Source: Streptococcus intermedius SK54 = ATCC 27335
Lineage (GTDB): Bacteria; Bacillota; Bacilli; Lactobacillales; Streptococcaceae
Direction: 5' to 3'
DNA: 64,000 bases
Assembly (NCBI RefSeq): GCF_000413475.1
Contig: NZ_ATFK01000001.1
Span: forward strand, 372,001-436,000
Under the pieces are notes generated by a model. That model did no database searches. It saw only the letters and a list, made by a program, of their open reading frames with translations, and had not been told where the DNA came from. How positions within the stretch are numbered: position 1 is the first letter of the stretch; each line of letters starts with the position of its first letter. This document shows, piece after piece, positions 12,444-61,212 of the stretch. The position numbers were made by a program, and so were the translations under genes.

Positions 12444-12592
12444 GTGCTCCTTGAGAATGTTTCCTAACGCCTCATTGACTACTTGTGCAGTCTTGTTTGG
12501 TAGCCAGCAAATGAGTTTGTGCAGAGTCATTCTGTGAGCAGACAAGATGTCTTTTCTCGTGTCTGAATCACTGTATCAATCTCGTAGTGCCC
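12444..12592 (-). mobile_element. IS30-family transposase fragment, degenerate
   Basis: On the minus strand 12592 to about 12535 reads GHYEIDTVIQTREKTSCLLT, the DDE-region signature of IS30 transposases, followed by a stop. After a one-base frame change the next stretch reads LPNKTAQVVNEALGNILKE. Both ends of the gene and the terminal repeats are missing. This is a short relic in the gap after the ABC operon. Confidence 0.6.
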
Positions 12593-13037
12593 AGTTCTAG
12601 TCACTCAATGAGGCAACGCTCAGCCATTATCAGTGTGGTAGAATAACTTTGCATCTCTATGTTCATTTGTTTAGGTTTTGATTAACTTACAAGTATAACA
12701 TGGAGGTGCTTTTTTCTATTTTCAAGTGGCTAACTTCATTTTAGAACTTTCGAAGATTTTAAATATCAAAATATTTTATAAATCTTAGTTAAATATATTG
12801 TGTCGAAAAATTTAGTATGTTATAATGAATAATTGTGGGTTAAATATATATGAAAATAGATTAGGATGATTTAAACTAGACCATCTCCTTTTTATATAAA
12901 CGTATTTCCTGATATGTTCAAACAATAGGATTGATATCTAGTTGATGATGAATAGCTATTTTCATGAATTGTGCACAAAATAATTATCCCATAATTATAA
13001 TATAAAGTGACCCAATCACTTTGGAGGTTAAATTAAA
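12593..13037 (+). other. Non-coding stretch with leader of the CAP-domain gene
   Basis: No gene is recognised here. A 10-bp sequence at 12605-12614 is the exact inverse of 12469-12478 inside the IS30 relic. Towards the end TATAAT lies at 12996-13001, then a small hairpin AGTGA/TCACT (13006-13020) directly before the ribosome site TTTGGAGG of the next gene. The -35 region is unclear. Confidence 0.5.
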
Positions 13038-54455: not shown

Positions 54456-54728
54456 ATGGCAATTCTACCAGCTAGAACAGCTGTACTAGATTATATGAAT
54501 ACAGTAGATGAGGCAGATGTTTACCAAGTTATGGAAGCGCTTAAAAATGTTTATGGTAAAGAAAAACATTTTACAGTTCCAATATTTTTAGAACATTTAA
54601 TGTCATTAGAATGTAATGGATATTTAGTTCAGACTGGATATAGTTTAAATACAGATGGAAATTTGAGTATCCGCTACCAAATCAATGAGGACGGCAAACA
54701 AGCTGTTCAAAAATATATTGTAAAGTAA
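54456..54728 (+). CDS. Small winged-helix-like protein of unknown role
   Basis: This 90-residue soluble protein is not assigned to a family. Predicted helix-helix-helix-wing order (DEADVYQVMEALKNVYG, FTVPIFLEHLMSLECNGYLV, then a strand-turn-strand NLSIRYQINEDGKQAVQKYI) resembles PadR/MarR-type winged helices. AGGAGGTTTAAC precedes the ATG. It sits between the transporter and a shell gene. It might be a local regulator or a structural cargo adaptor; neither can be decided. Confidence 0.6.
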   Translation: MAILPARTAVLDYMNTVDEADVYQVMEALKNVYGKEKHFTVPIFLEHLMSLECNGYLVQTGYSLNTDGNLSIRYQINEDGKQAVQKYIVK

Positions 54729-54748: not shown

Positions 54749-55045
54749 ATGAGATATCGTGGAGGACAAGCTTTGGGTCTCGTAGAAACTGTCGGTTTAG
54801 TTCCGGCGCTAGAAGCTTGTGACAAGATGTTAAAAGCGAGCAATGTGAAGTTAGTTTCTTACGAAAATATAGGTTCGACATTGGTTACAATTATGGTTGT
54901 AGGAGATGTAGCAGCGGTTGAAGCAGCGGTTGAAGCAGGTGCACAAGCAGCGGCAGCTATTGGAAAATTAACGTCTCATAATGTTATGCCACGACCAATT
55001 CCTTCCGTTGGGGATATTGTTTCAGTGCATGATATTGATAATTGA
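54749..55045 (+). CDS. Microcompartment shell protein, hexameric BMC type
   Basis: This 98-residue single BMC-domain protein starts RYRGGQALGLVETVGLVPAL and has MLKASNVKLVSYENIGSTLV and SHNVMPRPIPSVGDI at the end. It is a canonical hexamer-forming tile. The central segment AAVEAAVEAGAQAAAAIG is typical of the second helix. AAAAAGGAG precedes the ATG. It differs from the other two tiles in the pore-facing loop, which may tune metabolite passage. Confidence 0.95.
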   Translation: MRYRGGQALGLVETVGLVPALEACDKMLKASNVKLVSYENIGSTLVTIMVVGDVAAVEAAVEAGAQAAAAIGKLTSHNVMPRPIPSVGDIVSVHDIDN

Positions 55046-55392: not shown

Positions 55393-56748
55393 ATGAGATA
55401 TATCGATAACGATTTAGATTCCATTCAAGAAATGAGGAATCTAATTCAGAATGCTCAAATATCTTTTCTCCAATTACAAAATCTTGAACAAAATGAACTA
55501 AATGTTTATGGTGAAAAATTTATAGAGGAAATAGAAAAAGAAGCGGATGGATTAATTACAGATGTTGTATCAGGAAATCAATATGGTCTGGAGTCTGACG
55601 AGATCTTTCTATTTCACCATTTTCTAGATAAATTTAAGAAGACTATCCAACAAGAAAACTATATTGGGATTCTTGAAGGAAATATTGATGAAAAAACTAT
55701 AGAAATAGGAGCACCTATAGGGGTCGTATCAGTTTTATTACCTGCCTTTCCAACATTTACCCTTCTGATTAATATTATTTTATTAGCTATGAAGTCAGGG
55801 AATACAATGGTAGTTGTTGCAAACAAACATACTAAGGAAGTCACGATTGAATCGTTTAAATATTTGGTTACCTTAGCAGAACAAGCTGGTTACCCTGAAG
55901 GAGGCATTGGAATCACAGAGAGCATTAGTGATTCAAGTGTTTTGGAACTATACAATAGTGAAAAAGTATCGTTGATTGTGAATATTGGGTGTTCAGAATA
56001 TATTAATAGACAATTTAAGACAACTACACCGTTGATTTATGGTGGAGAAGGTTCAGGTCCAGTGTTTATTGAACGGACAGCAAATATTGAGAAAGCAATT
56101 GAAGATATTATTCATTCTAGAAGCTTTGATAACGGGATTTTACCAGGGTCTGAACAGTTTTTGGTCACGGAAAATATTATCGAACAAGAGATACGATATA
56201 TGTTAACCTGCAAAGGAGCCTATATCTTAAATGAGACAGAGTGCGAACAATTAATTGCGTTTTTGAATCGATCAAAAAATAATACTTTGTGTAATTTTGC
56301 GGGTCATTCTGCTACATGGTTAGCCAAAATGGCAGGTTTTGAAGTTCCTGACTCAACAAGAGCACTTGTTTCCTTACAAGATTACATCAATCATGAAGAT
56401 TTTTTCAATCAAAAATTACTTTGTCCAATTATTATCGTATATCTTGAACCCGATTGGCAGATGGCATGTAAGAAATGTATGAGCTTATTAGCAGAGCTGA
56501 AGATGGGCCATACATTAACTATTCATTCTAAAGACTGGGAGGTTATCAAAGAATTTGCGCTTGTTAAGGAAGTTGGGCGTATTGTTGTAAATTCTCCTAC
56601 GGTCTGTGTGGCGACAGGTGTTATGTCTAATTTAGCTACCTCTTTAATTCTTGGGGGTGTCACTACTGGTAGGGGATATACTTCAGAAAATGTTACTCCA
56701 AAACATTGGACATATAGGCGTCAGATTGGATTTAAAGTTGAACAGTGA
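55393..56748 (+). CDS. Aldehyde dehydrogenase-like protein lacking the catalytic Cys
   Basis: This 451-residue protein matches the acylating CoA-dependent aldehyde dehydrogenases of microcompartments and AdhE in layout. Cofactor-domain segments are IGAPIGVVSVLLPAFPTFTL and LLAMKSGNTMVVVANKHT. Where relatives have FDNGxxCASEQ, this one reads SFDNGILPGSEQFLV: Pro251 (codon CCA at 56143) replaces the nucleophilic Cys. The rest of the fold looks intact, including GYTSENVTPKHW near the end. It may be a structural or regulatory pseudoenzyme, with an active aldehyde dehydrogenase beyond the window. It starts at ATG 55393 (a TTG one codon upstream is possible). Confidence 0.85.
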   Translation: MRYIDNDLDSIQEMRNLIQNAQISFLQLQNLEQNELNVYGEKFIEEIEKEADGLITDVVSGNQYGLESDEIFLFHHFLDKFKKTIQQENYIGILEGNIDEKTIEIGAPIGVVSVLLPAFPTFTLLINIILLAMKSGNTMVVVANKHTKEVTIESFKYLVTLAEQAGYPEGGIGITESISDSSVLELYNSEKVSLIVNIGCSEYINRQFKTTTPLIYGGEGSGPVFIERTANIEKAIEDIIHSRSFDNGILPGSEQFLVTENIIEQEIRYMLTCKGAYILNETECEQLIAFLNRSKNNTLCNFAGHSATWLAKMAGFEVPDSTRALVSLQDYINHEDFFNQKLLCPIIIVYLEPDWQMACKKCMSLLAELKMGHTLTIHSKDWEVIKEFALVKEVGRIVVNSPTVCVATGVMSNLATSLILGGVTTGRGYTSENVTPKHWTYRRQIGFKVEQ

Positions 56749-56790: not shown

Positions 56791-59337
56791 ATGGATATGA
56801 ATGAATTTACCGCTAAGTTAGAAGAAGCGACTAAGAAATTAAGTACTGAAGATCGTGCATCCTTAGTTAAAATTTTTCAAAGCGTTTCAGAAGATATTAC
56901 AAAACCAGATTTCGTTGCTTCTGGTTCTCAATATGTAGAATCAGATGGTGTAGATATCCCGGATGGGATTACTCCTCGTCTACAAGCCTTGAAAGATCAA
57001 TATTTGAATGCAACACCAACGATTTCCTTGATTCGTGCAGTCAATCTAACAAAAATCTCTAAAGAAAACGAAGGAATGCCTAAAGCAATCCTAAGAGGTA
57101 CTGCTTTTAAAGAATTTTGTAAGATCGCTCCTCTTGTCATTCAAGATCATGAATTGTTGGTAGGCGCACCAAATGGTGGTGCTCGTTGGGGGGCGTTCTC
57201 TCCAGATATTTCATGGCGTTGGCTCCGTGATGAGATTGATACAGTGTCTACTCGCCCTCAAGACCCTTATTTCCTATCGGAAGAAAACAAACGAATTTTA
57301 CGTGAAGAAATTTTCCCATATTGGAAGGGTAAATCAGTCGATGAAGCTTGTGAATCTCAATACCGTGAAGCGGGTGCTTGGGAACTTTCAGGTGAATCTT
57401 TTGTATCAGACTGTTCTTACCATGCGCAATCAGGTGGAGGCGACTCTAATCCGGGTTATGACGTTGTTGGTATGAAGAAAGGAATGCTGGACATCAAGGC
57501 TGAAGCGGAAGCTTGCTTGAAAGAACTAGACTATGCAAATCCTGATGATCTTGAAAAGATTTATTTCTATAAAGCACGTATTCTCACTGCAGAAGGTGTG
57601 ATGATCTATGCACAACGTATGTCAGAATACGCAGCTCAATTAGCAGCGAAGGAAACCAATCCAAAACGTAAAGCGGAATTGGAGATGATTTCTCGAGTAA
57701 ATGCGAACGTTCCAGCTCATAAACCAGAAACTTTCTGGGAAGCAATGCAATACGTTGTAACCATCCAACACTTGTTACTTTGTGAAGAAAACCAAACTGG
57801 ACTGTCAATTGGGCGTGTAGATCAGTATATGTATCCATTCTATAAGAAAGATAAAGAAGCGGGGCGCATGAATGATTATCAAGCATTTGAATTGGCTGGT
57901 AGCATGTTCATCAAGATGTCTGAAATGATGTGGCTAACTTCTGAAGGTTCATCACAATTCTTCGCAGGTTATCAGCCATTTGTAAATATGTGTGTTGGTG
58001 GTGTAACTCGGGAAGGACGTGATGCTACAAACGATCTCACTTACTTACTGATGGATGCCATTCGTCATGTTAAAGTTTACCAGCCAACCTTAGCAGCTCG
58101 TATTAATAATAAATCACCTCGTAAGTATTTGAAGAAGATCGTTGATGTTGTTCGTGCGGGAATCGGTTTCCCAGCTTGTCACTTTGATGATACACATATC
58201 AAGATGATGCTTGCCAAAGGTGTATCGATGGAAGATGCACGTGACTATTGCTTAATGGGGTGTGTGGAACCACAAAAATCAGGTCGTTTGTATCAGTGGA
58301 CTTCTACATCCTATACCCAATGGCCAATTTTGATTGAAACAACACTCAATCATGGTATTCCGCTTTGGTATGGAAAACCTGTGACACCGGATATGGGATC
58401 TCTCAATCGATACAAGACATTTGAGGAATTTGAACATGCAGTGAAAGAGACTATTAAGTATGTCACTAAATGGACTTCTGTCATGACTGTTATTTCACAA
58501 CGTGTGCAGCGTGACTTGGCACCAGTTCCACTCATGTCTATCATGTATGAAGGAACAATGGAACATGGCCGAGATGTTAAGGCTGGCGGGGCCATGTATA
58601 ACTTTGGACCTGGTGTGGTTTGGTCTGGCTTAGCCAACTATGCGGACTCTATGGCAGCCATTAAGAAACTTGTGTTTGAAGATAAGAAATATACTTTGGA
58701 AGAATTAAATAGAGCTTTAGTTGCCGACTTTGAAGGATACGATCAAGTGCGCGCAGACTGTCTAGCAGCTCCTAAATATGGTAATGACGATGACTACGTA
58801 GATTACTTTACTTCAGATATCATCGGATTTACAGAAGAAGAACACCGTAAATATAAGACTTTGTACTCTGTCCTCAGTCATGGAACCTTGTCTATTTCAA
58901 ACAATACTCCATTAGGACAAATTACAGGAGCTTCTGCGTCTGGGCGTCGAGCTTGGAAACCATTATCAGATGGGATCTCTCCAGACCATGGAATGGATAC
59001 AAAAGGTCCTACAGCAATTATTAAATCTGTCTCTAAGATGGCAAATGAAAATATGAACATTGGACTTGTTCATAACTTCAAGATTATGGCTGGTTTGCTC
59101 GACACACCTCAAGGTGAGGAAAGCTTGATTACATTGCTTCGTACAGCAAGTGTTCTTGGAAATGGTGAAATGCAGTTTAACTACTTGGATAATGCAGTTT
59201 TGATTGATGCGCAGAAACATCCTGAAAACTATCGTGATTTGATTGTTCGTGTAGCAGGTTATAGTGCGTTCTTCGTTGAATTGTGTAAAGATGTTCAAGA
59301 TGAAATTATTTCTCGTACAGTTTTAACACAATTTTAG
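56791..59337 (+). CDS. cutC: Choline trimethylamine-lyase CutC (glycyl radical enzyme)
   Basis: This 848-residue enzyme cleaves choline to trimethylamine and acetaldehyde inside the microcompartment. All key residues of characterised CutC align at a constant +2 offset: Tyr210 and Asp218 ([11 protein letters not shown]), Phe397, Cys491 and Glu493 in GCVEP, Tyr508 (YQWTSTSY), and the radical Gly823 in RVAGYSAFF. The GCVEP motif separates CutC from pyruvate formate-lyase and diol dehydratases. The length fits the shorter CutC type. The amphipathic N-terminal 35 residues could be an encapsulation signal. AGAAAGGAAAA precedes the ATG. A hairpin follows before cutD. Confidence 0.97.
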
Positions 59338-59409: not shown

Positions 59410-60396
59410 GTGGAAGCAGTGAATAAAAAACATGAAACGCGCATTAATGTTTTTAATGTACAGAAATATAATTTATATGATGGTCCAGGTATACGGACAA
59501 TTGTATTTTTTAAAGGTTGCCACATGCGTTGTAAATGGTGTGCAAATCCAGAAGGGTTAACATTTGGACCCAATATGATGTACAAAGAAACTTTGTGTAA
59601 ACCGTACAATACTTGCGCAACATCTTGTCCACTAGGAGACATCTGCTTTAAATATAAAACCAACGACAACATTCCTTATGATTATGAAGACACAGATCAT
59701 CCGATAGATATCAAGAGGTTTGATAAGAAAAAACCAACAGTTGATGATATTAAAGGTTGTCCAGAAGGAGCATTAACAATCGCTGGAGAATCAAAAACTA
59801 TTTCAGAATTAATGGAAATTATCCATGAGGATGATGCTTTTTATGAAATGTCTGGAGGTGGAGTTACTCTATCTGGAGGAGAATGTCTAGCTCAAGGAGA
59901 AGGTGCGTTAGCATTATTACAAGCATGTAAACAAGATGGATTAAATACCGCAGTTGAGACTGCTGGTTATGTTCCTAACAAAGTCATGTTGAAAGTCGCG
60001 GAGTATACAGATTTATTCCTATTTGATTTAAAGCATATGGATTCAAAACGTCATAATGAATTGACCGGCGTTAGCAATGAGCGAATCTTGAGCAATTTCA
60101 AATCAGTCATTGAAGGCGGTTATAATGTCAAAGTCAGAATGCCGATGCTAAAAGACATTAATGATAGGGAAGAAGAAATCCAAGACATTATTAATTTCCT
60201 AACTCCTTATAAAAATTTTCCCAATTTTAAAGGGATTGATTTGTTGCCTTATCATAAATTGGGGGTGAATAAATATTATCAATTAGGGATGGACTATGAA
60301 ATTGAAGGAGATCCTTCGTTGAGTCAATATGATTTAGACAGAATAGAAAAATATATATTAGCAGCTGATTTTCCAGTAACTGTGGTGAAACATTAA
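59410..60396 (+). CDS. cutD: CutC-activating radical SAM enzyme CutD
   Basis: This 328-residue glycyl-radical-enzyme activase generates the Gly823 radical on CutC. The N-terminus reads YNLYDGPGIRTIVFFKGC and the radical-SAM cluster motif is CHMRCKWC (CxxxCxxC). A Cys-rich insert (CKPYNTCATSCPLGDIC, CPEGAL) should hold further iron-sulfur clusters, as in other activases of this group. SAM-binding GGVTLSGGE follows. It starts at GTG 59410 behind TAGGAGAA; a second GTG lies three codons later. It follows cutC, as in known choline clusters. Confidence 0.96.
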   Translation: MEAVNKKHETRINVFNVQKYNLYDGPGIRTIVFFKGCHMRCKWCANPEGLTFGPNMMYKETLCKPYNTCATSCPLGDICFKYKTNDNIPYDYEDTDHPIDIKRFDKKKPTVDDIKGCPEGALTIAGESKTISELMEIIHEDDAFYEMSGGGVTLSGGECLAQGEGALALLQACKQDGLNTAVETAGYVPNKVMLKVAEYTDLFLFDLKHMDSKRHNELTGVSNERILSNFKSVIEGGYNVKVRMPMLKDINDREEEIQDIINFLTPYKNFPNFKGIDLLPYHKLGVNKYYQLGMDYEIEGDPSLSQYDLDRIEKYILAADFPVTVVKH

Positions 60397-60418: not shown

Positions 60419-60769
60419 TTGATTGAAGAACTTGGGAAAATAGATCGGATTATCCAGGAGTCTGTACCAGGAAAACAAATTACTCTAGCCCATGTTATTG
60501 CGGCTCCAATTGAAGCGGTGTATGAATGCTTAGGAGTAGATCATGAAGGAGCAATAGGAGTAGTATCACTTACTCCTAATGAGACAGCTATTATAGCAGC
60601 CGATATCGCCGGAAAGGCAGCGAATATTGATATTTGTTTTGTTGATCGATTTACGGGTTCCGTGATGTTTAGTGGGGATATACAAAGTGTCGAAACATCG
60701 CTGGAAGATATTTTGGAGTATTTTAAGAACTCCTTAGGTTTTTCAACTGTTCCATTAACAAAATCATGA
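60419..60769 (+). CDS. EutS/PduU-type circularly permuted shell protein
   Basis: This 116-residue BMC protein is of the permuted type. The N-terminal segment RIIQESVPGKQITLAHVIA forms the beta-barrel strand typical of EutS/PduU, followed by AIGVVSLTPNETAIIAADIA and GKAANIDICFVDRFTGSVMF. Such tiles form closed-pore hexamers. It begins at TTG 60419 behind GGAGAGGAG. Its stop overlaps the next gene by ATGA. Confidence 0.93.
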   Translation: MIEELGKIDRIIQESVPGKQITLAHVIAAPIEAVYECLGVDHEGAIGVVSLTPNETAIIAADIAGKAANIDICFVDRFTGSVMFSGDIQSVETSLEDILEYFKNSLGFSTVPLTKS

Positions 60770-61212
60770 GAAAAAGATTACTACTAATAGGTCCATCTGA
60801 TGAAGAAAATAGAGAGCTCCTATATTTTTTAGAAAATAAAACGAGCTTACGCATTAGACCATCCATTATGTATTATGACAAAACGATTTTGTTCCCCAGT
60901 ACCTATTTGCGAAGCCCATGGATGAAAAAATATCTGATAGCAATGCAGCAAAATGCTTATTTGGTTTTGATGCTTGCCTCTTGTAAAAGTAAGAGAGGGA
61001 TTTATTCCCCAAACTTTGCTAAGGCCTTTCGAGCTCCGACCATCGGAGTGATACTGTATGATGAAACTCAATCGAAAGAAAGAGTATCTGACTGTAAAAT
61101 GGAGTTAGTCAATGCTGGTGTGGACGAAACAGTTGAATTGAATTTAAAAAATTCAGTAGAGTGTGATCGTTTTTTACAAAAAATAAAATTAGATAAAGAA
61201 GGTAGTTCATGA
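60766..61212 (+). CDS. EutP/PduV-like protein without a P-loop
   Basis: This 148-residue protein resembles EutP/PduV, small GTPase-like proteins of microcompartment operons, in length, position after a EutS-type gene and layout (RKRLLLIGPSDEENRELLYF; TYLRSPWMKKYLIAMQQNAY; APTIGVILYDET). The Walker A site expected at the N-terminus (GxxxxGKT) reads GPSDEENR, so nucleotide binding is unlikely. NKxD is not clear either, with YDETQS in its place. The assignment rests on layout and context, so another origin is possible. It overlaps both neighbours by ATGA. Confidence 0.65.
   Translation: MRKRLLLIGPSDEENRELLYFLENKTSLRIRPSIMYYDKTILFPSTYLRSPWMKKYLIAMQQNAYLVLMLASCKSKRGIYSPNFAKAFRAPTIGVILYDETQSKERVSDCKMELVNAGVDETVELNLKNSVECDRFLQKIKLDKEGSS

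What the first reader, a model, noticed from the sequence alone, without database searches (positions are those of the whole stretch)
55393..56748. Aldehyde dehydrogenase-like protein with Pro in place of the catalytic Cys
The active-site motif reads NGILPGSEQ where AdhE-type relatives have NGxxCASEQ. Codon 251 is CCA. The reading frame is intact over 451 residues and sits in the operon directly before cutC, so it is under selection for something other than thioester chemistry. A pseudoenzyme in a microcompartment could be a scaffold, a CoA or NAD+ store, or an assembly partner of an active paralogue.
Basis: partly seen in the sequence, partly recalled or inferred. Interest (0 to 1): 0.75.

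Follow-up and report, generated by a model that had tools for sequence, protein, structure and literature searches.

The report
Dead aldehyde dehydrogenase in choline microcompartment
In streptococci that carry choline-breakdown genes, the gene beside the choline-cleaving enzyme encodes an aldehyde dehydrogenase look-alike with proline in place of the catalytic cysteine in all 39 distinct streptococcal-type versions compared; it is predicted to be inactive and likely survives as a building part of a protein-shelled organelle, and in our family trees its nearest active cousin is the enzyme of the E. coli type of that organelle.

Summary
Window 55393-56748 encodes a 451-aa aldehyde dehydrogenase-fold protein, directly before cutC, with CCA (Pro) at codon 251. 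It is no recent mutation: all 39 distinct copies of the streptococcal type have Pro, and other Cys-less relatives have Ser, Pro, Ala or Met.

The bare fact is in print: Axen 2014 and Sutter 2021 report an inactive second AldDH (Ser/Pro for Cys) in GRM1 choline loci. Not seen in my searches: (1) one loss of Cys suffices on the trees, and the dead clade's sister is the single active AldDH of GRM2 (E. coli) loci, not GRM1's active CutF (100/95; AU p 0.0026); (2) in streptococci the oxyanion Asn, the NAD/CoA-contact motif and the C-terminal tail are gone too, yet dN/dS is 0.055 in the one informative pair; (3) it accompanies CutC in 12 of 13 streptococcal genomes, is absent from 271 without CutC, and was deleted in one.

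Best explanation: CutB is likely an old cut AldDH, replaced as catalyst by CutF and kept as a core-assembly subunit touching CutC and/or CutF. A NAD+/CoA store is disfavoured in streptococci. Partner binding is untested.

The parts
55393..56748 (+). cutB: Cys-less aldehyde dehydrogenase-fold protein, 451 aa (predicted pseudoenzyme)
56143..56145 (+). codon 251, CCA = Pro, in place of the catalytic Cys
   Evidence: 39 of 39 distinct streptococcal-type copies Pro
55747..55764 (+). residues 119-124 FPTFTL in place of TNPTST (oxyanion Asn120 replaced by Pro)
   Evidence: 39 of 39 Pro vs Asn in 91 of 91 Cys-bearing relatives
55819..55827 (+). residues 143-145 ANK in place of PHP (NAD/CoA-contact motif, matched to Cphy1178 P161-H162 by motif and numbering offset)
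56509..56511 (+). His373 (GHT motif), kept; matched by motif and offset to H387 of Cphy1178
   Evidence: His in every set counted; H387 mutant inactive in Cphy1178
56710..56730 (+). residues 440-446, last strand (oligomerisation region by comparison with Cphy1178), with Y441 and R443; the protein ends soon after, without an encapsulation-type tail
56791..59337 (+). cutC choline TMA-lyase, 848 aa
   Evidence: TIGR04394 over cut-off
59410..60396 (+). cutD activating enzyme
   Evidence: TIGR04395 over cut-off
54749..55045 (+). BMC shell gene
   Evidence: PF00936
55060..55377 (+). BMC shell gene directly before cutB
   Evidence: PF00936
53117..53395 (+). BMC shell gene, first of the locus
   Evidence: PF00936
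53426..54454 (+). EamA/DMT-type transporter
   Evidence: PF00892
60419..60769 (+). EutS-like BMC shell gene
   Evidence: PF00936; NF012012 100.5 bits, below its cut-off of 123
60766..61212 (+). EutP/PduV-like gene
   Evidence: PF10662
61209..62351 (+). iron-containing alcohol dehydrogenase
   Evidence: PF00465, PF25137

Best explanation
This gene encodes CutB, an aldehyde dehydrogenase-fold protein in which the catalytic cysteine, the oxyanion asparagine and the motif likely to contact NAD+ and CoA are all replaced; it is predicted to be catalytically dead and likely works as a structural subunit that helps assemble the enzyme core of the choline microcompartment. Shown by sequence: the replacements, a tree that needs only one loss of Cys, purifying selection, the conserved place before cutC, and the sister relation to the active AldDH of GRM2 loci. 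Inferred: an ancestral choline-locus AldDH both oxidised acetaldehyde and bound the CutC-containing core. In the GRM1 line a second, separately derived AldDH (CutF) took over the chemistry, and CutB kept only the binding role. In GRM2 the sister enzyme is recruited by a CutC-like N-terminal domain that lacks catalytic residues (Kalnins 2020; PMC6325248). So GRM1 would pair a dead AldDH with a live CutC where GRM2 pairs a live AldDH with a dead CutC domain. In streptococci the encapsulation-type tail is gone too, so CutB would have to enter the compartment by riding on CutC or CutF. Untested: the partner, the localisation, and whether the protein is inactive in an assay.
For: Of 128 columns at least 90% conserved in 91 Cys-bearing relatives, 70 are lost in 39 distinct streptococcal-type copies, including C251P, N120P, PHP143-145 and K70/K73. 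Changing C269 or H387 abolishes activity in the characterised relative Cphy1178 (PMC4762007, passages). dN/dS is 0.055 at dS 0.70 for G015-G043, against CutF 0.057 and CutC 0.029. Decay is uneven: residues 41-60 and 141-180 (cofactor domain) fall to 0.32-0.48 pairwise identity vs 0.79-0.84 in CutF, but 1-20, 221-260, 341-400 and 421-440 stay within 0.08 of CutF. Co-occurrence: 12 of 13 CutC genomes vs 0 of 271 without, Fisher p 2.9e-20. Elsewhere in the phylum a non-Cys AldDH stands just upstream of CutC in 11 of 13 CutC genomes. Trees: non-Cys rows form one clade 100/100, sister to GRM2 AldDH 100/95, and again without fast rows 100/97. Relatives of the E. coli GRM2 AldDH keep Cys in 112 of 112 and share G217, G428 and R443 with CutB in 112 of 112. 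Gene order is compatible: BMC-BMC-CutB-(ADH)-CutC vs BMC-BMC-BMC-AldDH-EutN-ADH-CutC. Kalnins 2020 passages: the CutC N-terminal part ensures CutF encapsulation in GRM2. Fold confidently predicted, pLDDT 92.
Against: CutB is dispensable somewhere: G221 kept CutC and CutF but only the first 18 codons of cutB, and G339 and G378 have CutC without a CutB, all three with a CutC of ordinary length. So an obligate adaptor role cannot be general. CutB evolves faster than CutF (mean identity 0.68 vs 0.78 over 66 pairs; the other finite dN/dS values printed range 0.048-0.128, mostly at saturated dS). Decay is not confined to the cofactor domain: 281-300 and 401-420 also drop by 0.26 and 0.21. No binding, localisation or phenotype was tested, and no complex could be modelled. 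The streptococcal protein has no tail. GRM1 CutC lacks the N-terminal domain that recruits AldDH in GRM2, so the contact cannot be identical. Non-streptococcal CutBs keep most cofactor residues, so a cofactor-linked role there is not excluded. The tree program warned of long branches meeting among the fast CutB rows; one search left them out.
Confidence: 0.55

Rival explanations
1. CutB is a cofactor reservoir or sensor that binds NAD(H) or CoA without turning over.
For: Non-streptococcal members keep the PHP motif start and Glu341: P143 in 85 of 85, H144 in 84 of 85 and E341 in 84 of 85 of the second-search set; P143 in 11 of 11, H144 in 10 of 11 and E341 in 11 of 11 of the cut-locus set.
Against: In the streptococcal type P143 is kept in 1 of 39, H144 in 2 of 39, E341 in 0 of 39 and N120 in 0 of 39, and the strongest decay is in the cofactor domain. 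A role shared by the whole clade would then not rest on cofactor binding.
Confidence: 0.12
2. CutB forms mixed oligomers with CutF and tunes or stabilises it, with no contact to CutC (partner is CutF alone).
For: The AldDH fold is predicted intact, including the last strand of the oligomerisation region; CutF carries a C-terminal tail that streptococcal CutB lacks.
Against: CutB sits beside cutC, or one gene away, in 23 of 26 loci, and far from cutF. CutB and CutF are only 28% identical, and three genomes have CutF without CutB.
Confidence: 0.18
3. CutB is a relic in slow decay with no present function.
For: Deleted in G221 down to an 18-codon stump, with EutP also reduced to a possible fragment (E 0.005); evolves faster than CutF and CutC.
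Against: Open frames of 447-453 aa in 12 of 12 streptococcal loci, low dN/dS, and persistence in a clade that spans streptococci, an enterococcus and named clostridial proteins after what the trees need as a single loss of Cys.
Confidence: 0.1
4. CutB catalyses a different reaction with another residue as nucleophile.
For: His373, Cys359 and Cys362 are conserved in CutB, and the NG-x-x-x-x-x-EQ loop is kept.
Against: Cys359 and mostly Cys362 are also present in active relatives (77 and 65 of 78), so they are not new; position 251 drifts between Ser, Pro, Ala and Met, unlike a catalytic site.
Confidence: 0.05

Closest known systems
Putatively inactive second AldDH of GRM1 choline loci (Axen 2014 PMC4207490; Sutter 2021 PMC8217296; CutB)
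   Same: Same kind of locus, same loss of the catalytic Cys to Ser or Pro, second Cys-bearing AldDH in the locus.
   Different: The streptococcal form has also lost the oxyanion Asn, the PHP motif and the C-terminal tail.
GRM2 CutF, single acetaldehyde dehydrogenase of E. coli-type cut loci
   Same: Sister clade in the trees; shares G106, G217, E352, G428, R443 in 108-112 of 112 relatives; lies between BMC genes and cutC.
   Different: Keeps Cys251 in 112 of 112; works beside a 1128-aa CutC with an extra N-terminal domain.
GRM1 CutF (own-genome paralogue, L005:3464-5116)
   Same: Same fold family and locus.
   Different: Has Cys and a long C-terminal tail; belongs to a separate clade; 28% identical.
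ALDH16A1 and crystallin-type inactive aldehyde dehydrogenases of animals (recalled, no call)
   Same: Aldehyde dehydrogenase fold reused without catalysis.
   Different: Unrelated lineages, no microcompartment.

Membership tests
GRM1 inactive second AldDH (CutB) | Encoded in a choline locus with CutC and a second, Cys-bearing AldDH | tested here: met
GRM1 inactive second AldDH (CutB) | Catalytic Cys replaced by Ser or Pro | tested here: met
   Pro251
GRM1 inactive second AldDH (CutB) | Groups with other Cys-less cut AldDHs in a tree | tested here: met
   one clade of 31 rows, 100/100
GRM1 inactive second AldDH (CutB) | C-terminal encapsulation-type tail (seen in most other members here, not a published criterion) | tested here: not met
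   38 of 39 streptococcal-type copies have 5 or fewer residues beyond position 451; 11 of 11 other cut-locus members have 33-56
Acetylating acetaldehyde dehydrogenase (TIGR02518, EutE type) | Catalytic Cys in the G-x-x-C loop | tested here: not met
Acetylating acetaldehyde dehydrogenase (TIGR02518, EutE type) | NCBIfam curated cut-off | tested here: not met
   293.4 bits vs 620.1
Acetylating acetaldehyde dehydrogenase (TIGR02518, EutE type) | Fold | tested here: met
Acetylating acetaldehyde dehydrogenase (TIGR02518, EutE type) | CoA- and NAD+-dependent aldehyde oxidation | not testable with these tools
   needs an assay
AdhE | Fused C-terminal iron alcohol dehydrogenase domain | tested here: not met
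   451 aa, ends after the AldDH fold
Core adaptor of a microcompartment | Binds core enzymes or shell and is needed for their assembly | not testable with these tools
   needs co-purification or a deletion strain

The most novel reading that the evidence does not exclude
Choline microcompartments are built around one conserved contact between CutC and the CutB-lineage aldehyde dehydrogenase, with a dead copy of one partner serving as the adaptor: GRM2 kept the AldDH alive and added a dead CutC domain, while GRM1 kept CutC alone and let the AldDH die, importing a new AldDH (CutF) for the chemistry. CutB would thus be a former enzyme turned dedicated metabolosome core adaptor.
Probability: 0.3. 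Interest if true: 0.75.

Novelty: new variant of a known kind. Interest (0 to 1): 0.5.

Why it matters
[quoted passage not shown] If it is dead, pathway models and annotations of TMA-producing bacteria are wrong on this point. If the trees are right, the shared name CutF hides that GRM1 CutF and GRM2 CutF are not orthologues, so results on GRM2 CutF should not be moved to GRM1 CutF by name. If CutB is an adaptor, it would be a dedicated assembly protein in a metabolosome; Kalnins 2020 says metabolosomes have no specific additional adaptor proteins. The gene numbered next to the D. alaskensis CutC gene, Dde_3283, is in a published fitness heatmap, which makes the question directly testable.

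Tried and rejected
Sequencing error or recent mutation: rejected, Pro in 39 of 39 distinct relatives of the streptococcal type.

Replacement nucleophile: Cys359/Cys362 first looked like a clade-specific CxxC, but active relatives carry them too.

Clade hallmarks as proof of a new function: G106, G217, E352, G428 and R443 first looked specific to the dead clade. One search showed that GRM2 enzymes share them, so they most likely predate the loss of Cys. Only Y216 (137 of 145) and, in part, N197 (131) and Y441 (136) are specific.

First AU test (p 1.7e-7) left P0083 out of the CutF group, where it belongs, and so overstated the case; with P0083 in gave p 0.0026, the value used. Trees used subsets: one search took 6 of 39 streptococcal-type, 6 of 10 intermediate, 8 of 85 second-search, 10 of 11 cut-locus CutBs (L081, a long branch, left out), E. 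raffinosus, and the E. coli AldDH plus 10 of its 120 listed relatives. One search dropped a further 15 fast or odd rows.

The single-protein scan of genome contigs found one relative, an active AldDH in a locus that looks like ethanolamine use. dN/dS for most pairs is saturated; G012-G179 (0.106) rests on dS 0.03; only G015-G043 is informative. A complex could not be predicted (single chains only).

Literature: a functional study of CutB was not found in the searches (listings; passages read in eleven papers, among them PMC5026066, PMC8667426 and PMC5311937, which did not mention it at the terms searched). Figures are not held, so Sutter 2021 Fig. 5 or Ravcheev 2019 Fig. S2 may already draw the GRM2 relation. 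Zarzycki 2015, Martinez-del Campo 2015 and Kuehl 2014 are not held and were not read.

Full report
OBSERVATION. The reading frame is as described: 55393-56748, 451 residues, ATG start (a TTG lies one codon upstream), CCA at codon 251. The gene lies between a BMC shell gene and cutC. The window is part of a 1.95-Mb genome, G000:C1:372001-436000. The names of the closest homologues point to Streptococcus (the genome itself is unnamed). The rest of the locus runs beyond the window. It includes the active paralogue (550 aa, NGTICASEQ, L005:3464-5116) and, named by resemblance and by the matching Enterococcus annotation, a PduL-type phosphotransacylase. I call the locus GRM1 by its gene content; it was not formally typed.

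CONSERVATION. The first protein search gave 261 hits, of which the best 120 were listed. The 32 closest (54-92% identity) all have Pro; the next ten have Pro 6, Ser 3, Met 1; the remaining 78 have Cys. The named ones among the 32 are Streptococcus and one Lactococcus; many are unnamed. A profile search gave 987 hits, 120 listed, 85 of them new: Ser 81, Pro 2, Ala 2; the named ones are mainly clostridia, and their loci were not seen. In all, 145 distinct sequences without the Cys (Ser 92, Pro 48, Ala 4, Met 1) and 108 with it were compared.

CO-OCCURRENCE. Among 284 genomes of the genus, CutC passes its cut-off in 13. CutB (59% identity or more) is in 12 of these and in none of the other 271, whose best hits are 30% identical or less (Fisher p 2.9e-20). 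The three copies that marked with stops have open frames of 447-448 aa; the stops are most likely the proteins' own ends. From the two BMC genes through CutB, CutC, CutD and on to CutF and PduL the order is the same in all 12; the EamA gene was not found in two, L047 and L051. The exception, G221, keeps only the first 18 codons of cutB in the gap between the shell gene and cutC (E 7e-6), and a possible fragment of EutP (E 0.005), so this is a secondary loss. Among 398 genomes drawn across the phylum, 13 others have CutC. In 11 of the 13 an AldDH without Cys stands just upstream of CutC (Ser 8, Ala 2, Pro 1), in four of them with an alcohol dehydrogenase between; G339 and G378, one genus, have none. 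Enterococcus raffinosus also has a Pro form there.

HOW DEEP THE LOSS GOES. Of 128 columns conserved at 90% or more in 91 Cys-bearing sequences, 70 are lost in the 39 distinct streptococcal-type copies. In the characterised microcompartment enzyme Cphy1178 the catalytic Cys is C269, the base H387, the oxyanion residue N138, the CoA-activating residue E357, and P161/H162 contact the cofactors; changing C269 or H387 abolishes activity (PMC4762007, passages). Matched by motif and numbering offset (not by superposition; least sure for E357), the window protein has Pro251, Pro120, Lys341, Ala143 and Asn144; only His373 remains. Outside the streptococcal type P143, H144 and E341 are mostly kept; N120 is kept in 9 of 11 cut-locus members but is Ser in 82 of 85 of the second-search set. 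So the cofactor site most likely eroded after the Cys was gone. Streptococcal-type copies also end near position 451 (38 of 39 with five or fewer extra residues), whereas 11 of 11 other cut-locus CutBs carry tails of 33-56 residues, most of which look like amphipathic helices by eye. C-terminal encapsulation peptides are typical of this AldDH type (PMC8217296, passages).

SELECTION. In the one close, unsaturated and informative pair (G015-G043, dS 0.70) dN/dS is 0.055 for CutB, 0.057 for CutF and 0.029 for CutC; the other finite CutB values printed are 0.048-0.128, at dS that is saturated or, for G012-G179, tiny. Over 66 pairs CutB is 68% identical, CutF 78%, CutC 91%. The largest drops against CutF are in the cofactor domain (41-60, 141-180, 201-220), but 281-300 and 401-420 drop too; 1-20, 221-260, 341-400 and 421-440 stay within 0.08 of CutF. 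The predicted model is confident (pLDDT 92) and matches the Listeria and Geobacillus dehydrogenases.

ANCESTRY. Trees of 74-76 rows place all non-Cys sequences in them on one side of one branch. In one E. coli record (of 322 E. coli genomes with a match) the GRM2 locus has one AldDH and a 1128-aa CutC. A Klebsiella record has the same CutC length, but its AldDH lies in an unannotated gap and its frame is interrupted there, so only 437 aa were compared. The E. coli AldDH keeps Cys, yet in a careful tree rooted on AdhE it and its relatives are the sister of the CutB clade (100/95), not of GRM1 CutF. The result holds without the fast-evolving rows (100/97), and grouping GRM2 AldDH with GRM1 CutF is rejected at AU p 0.0026. 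Of 112 relatives of the E. coli enzyme of 480 aa or more (of 120 listed), 112 have Cys, and 108-112 share G106, G217, E352, G428 and R443 with CutB. These were not shown one by one to lie in cut loci. Gene order is compatible with orthology.

MECHANISM. [quoted passage not shown] That N-terminal extension is described as likely not functional, lacking the catalytic glycine and cysteine (PMC6325248, passages), and in E. coli it resembles residues 60-427 of the window's CutC (22% identity, E 6e-19). GRM1 lacks that domain but has CutB beside cutC. The most economical reading is that CutB keeps the binding half of an old dual role while the newer CutF does the chemistry. Everything from 'binds' onward is inference. 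The three loci without CutB show that it is not indispensable.

WHAT IS KNOWN. [quoted passage not shown] Sutter 2021 marks a putatively inactive second copy in GRM1A and GRM1B (PMC8217296, figure legend). Ravcheev 2019 lists CutB and CutF among CoA-acylating AldDHs (PMC6620236, supplement legend) and says proteobacterial Cut proteins cluster apart from those of Firmicutes (passages). A 2026 review still calls CutB a predicted oxidoreductase (PMC13258700, passages). No functional study of CutB turned up. Dde_3283, numbered next to CutC Dde_3282 in D. alaskensis, is named in the text as part of a fitness heatmap, but the figure is not held (PMC4215793, passages), and I did not check that protein's sequence.

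VERDICT. A real, conserved and already reported pseudoenzyme. The streptococcal form is a more eroded variant, and the link to GRM2 CutF is the part that gives a testable mechanism.

Noticed in passing
L005:6616-10281 (just beyond the window) and L044-L046, L048, L050-L054: A pyruvate:ferredoxin oxidoreductase-like gene (named by resemblance) follows the cut locus in 10 of 13 streptococcal loci and lies in several frames in L047; the stretches fetched for L049 and L055 show none but end nearby. It could supply low-potential electrons for CutD.
   Followed up: no
L055:8182-8235 and 12489-12653: Genome G221 has lost cutB (18-codon stump) and apparently EutP (possible fragment, E 0.005), while the other cut genes seen are present.
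   Followed up: partly
54456-54728: A 90-aa ORF without a Pfam match is conserved at 64-72% in the 12 other streptococcal cut loci and has weaker counterparts in some other cut loci.
   Followed up: no
G275:C4:86361-87755: A second, partial CutC-like stretch with a stop codon lies near the intact cut locus in G275.
   Followed up: no
G000:C1:332345-334717: A further glycyl-radical-enzyme family gene (543 bits to the CutC model, below cut-off) elsewhere in the window's genome.
   Followed up: no
L100, L101 (G339, G378): Two genomes of one genus have a cut locus with CutC but no CutB.
   Followed up: partly
L114:9859-11538: In the Klebsiella record the AldDH frame of the cut locus is interrupted (89 and 437 aa pieces) and not annotated; related Klebsiella proteins are full length (P0208).
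   Followed up: partly
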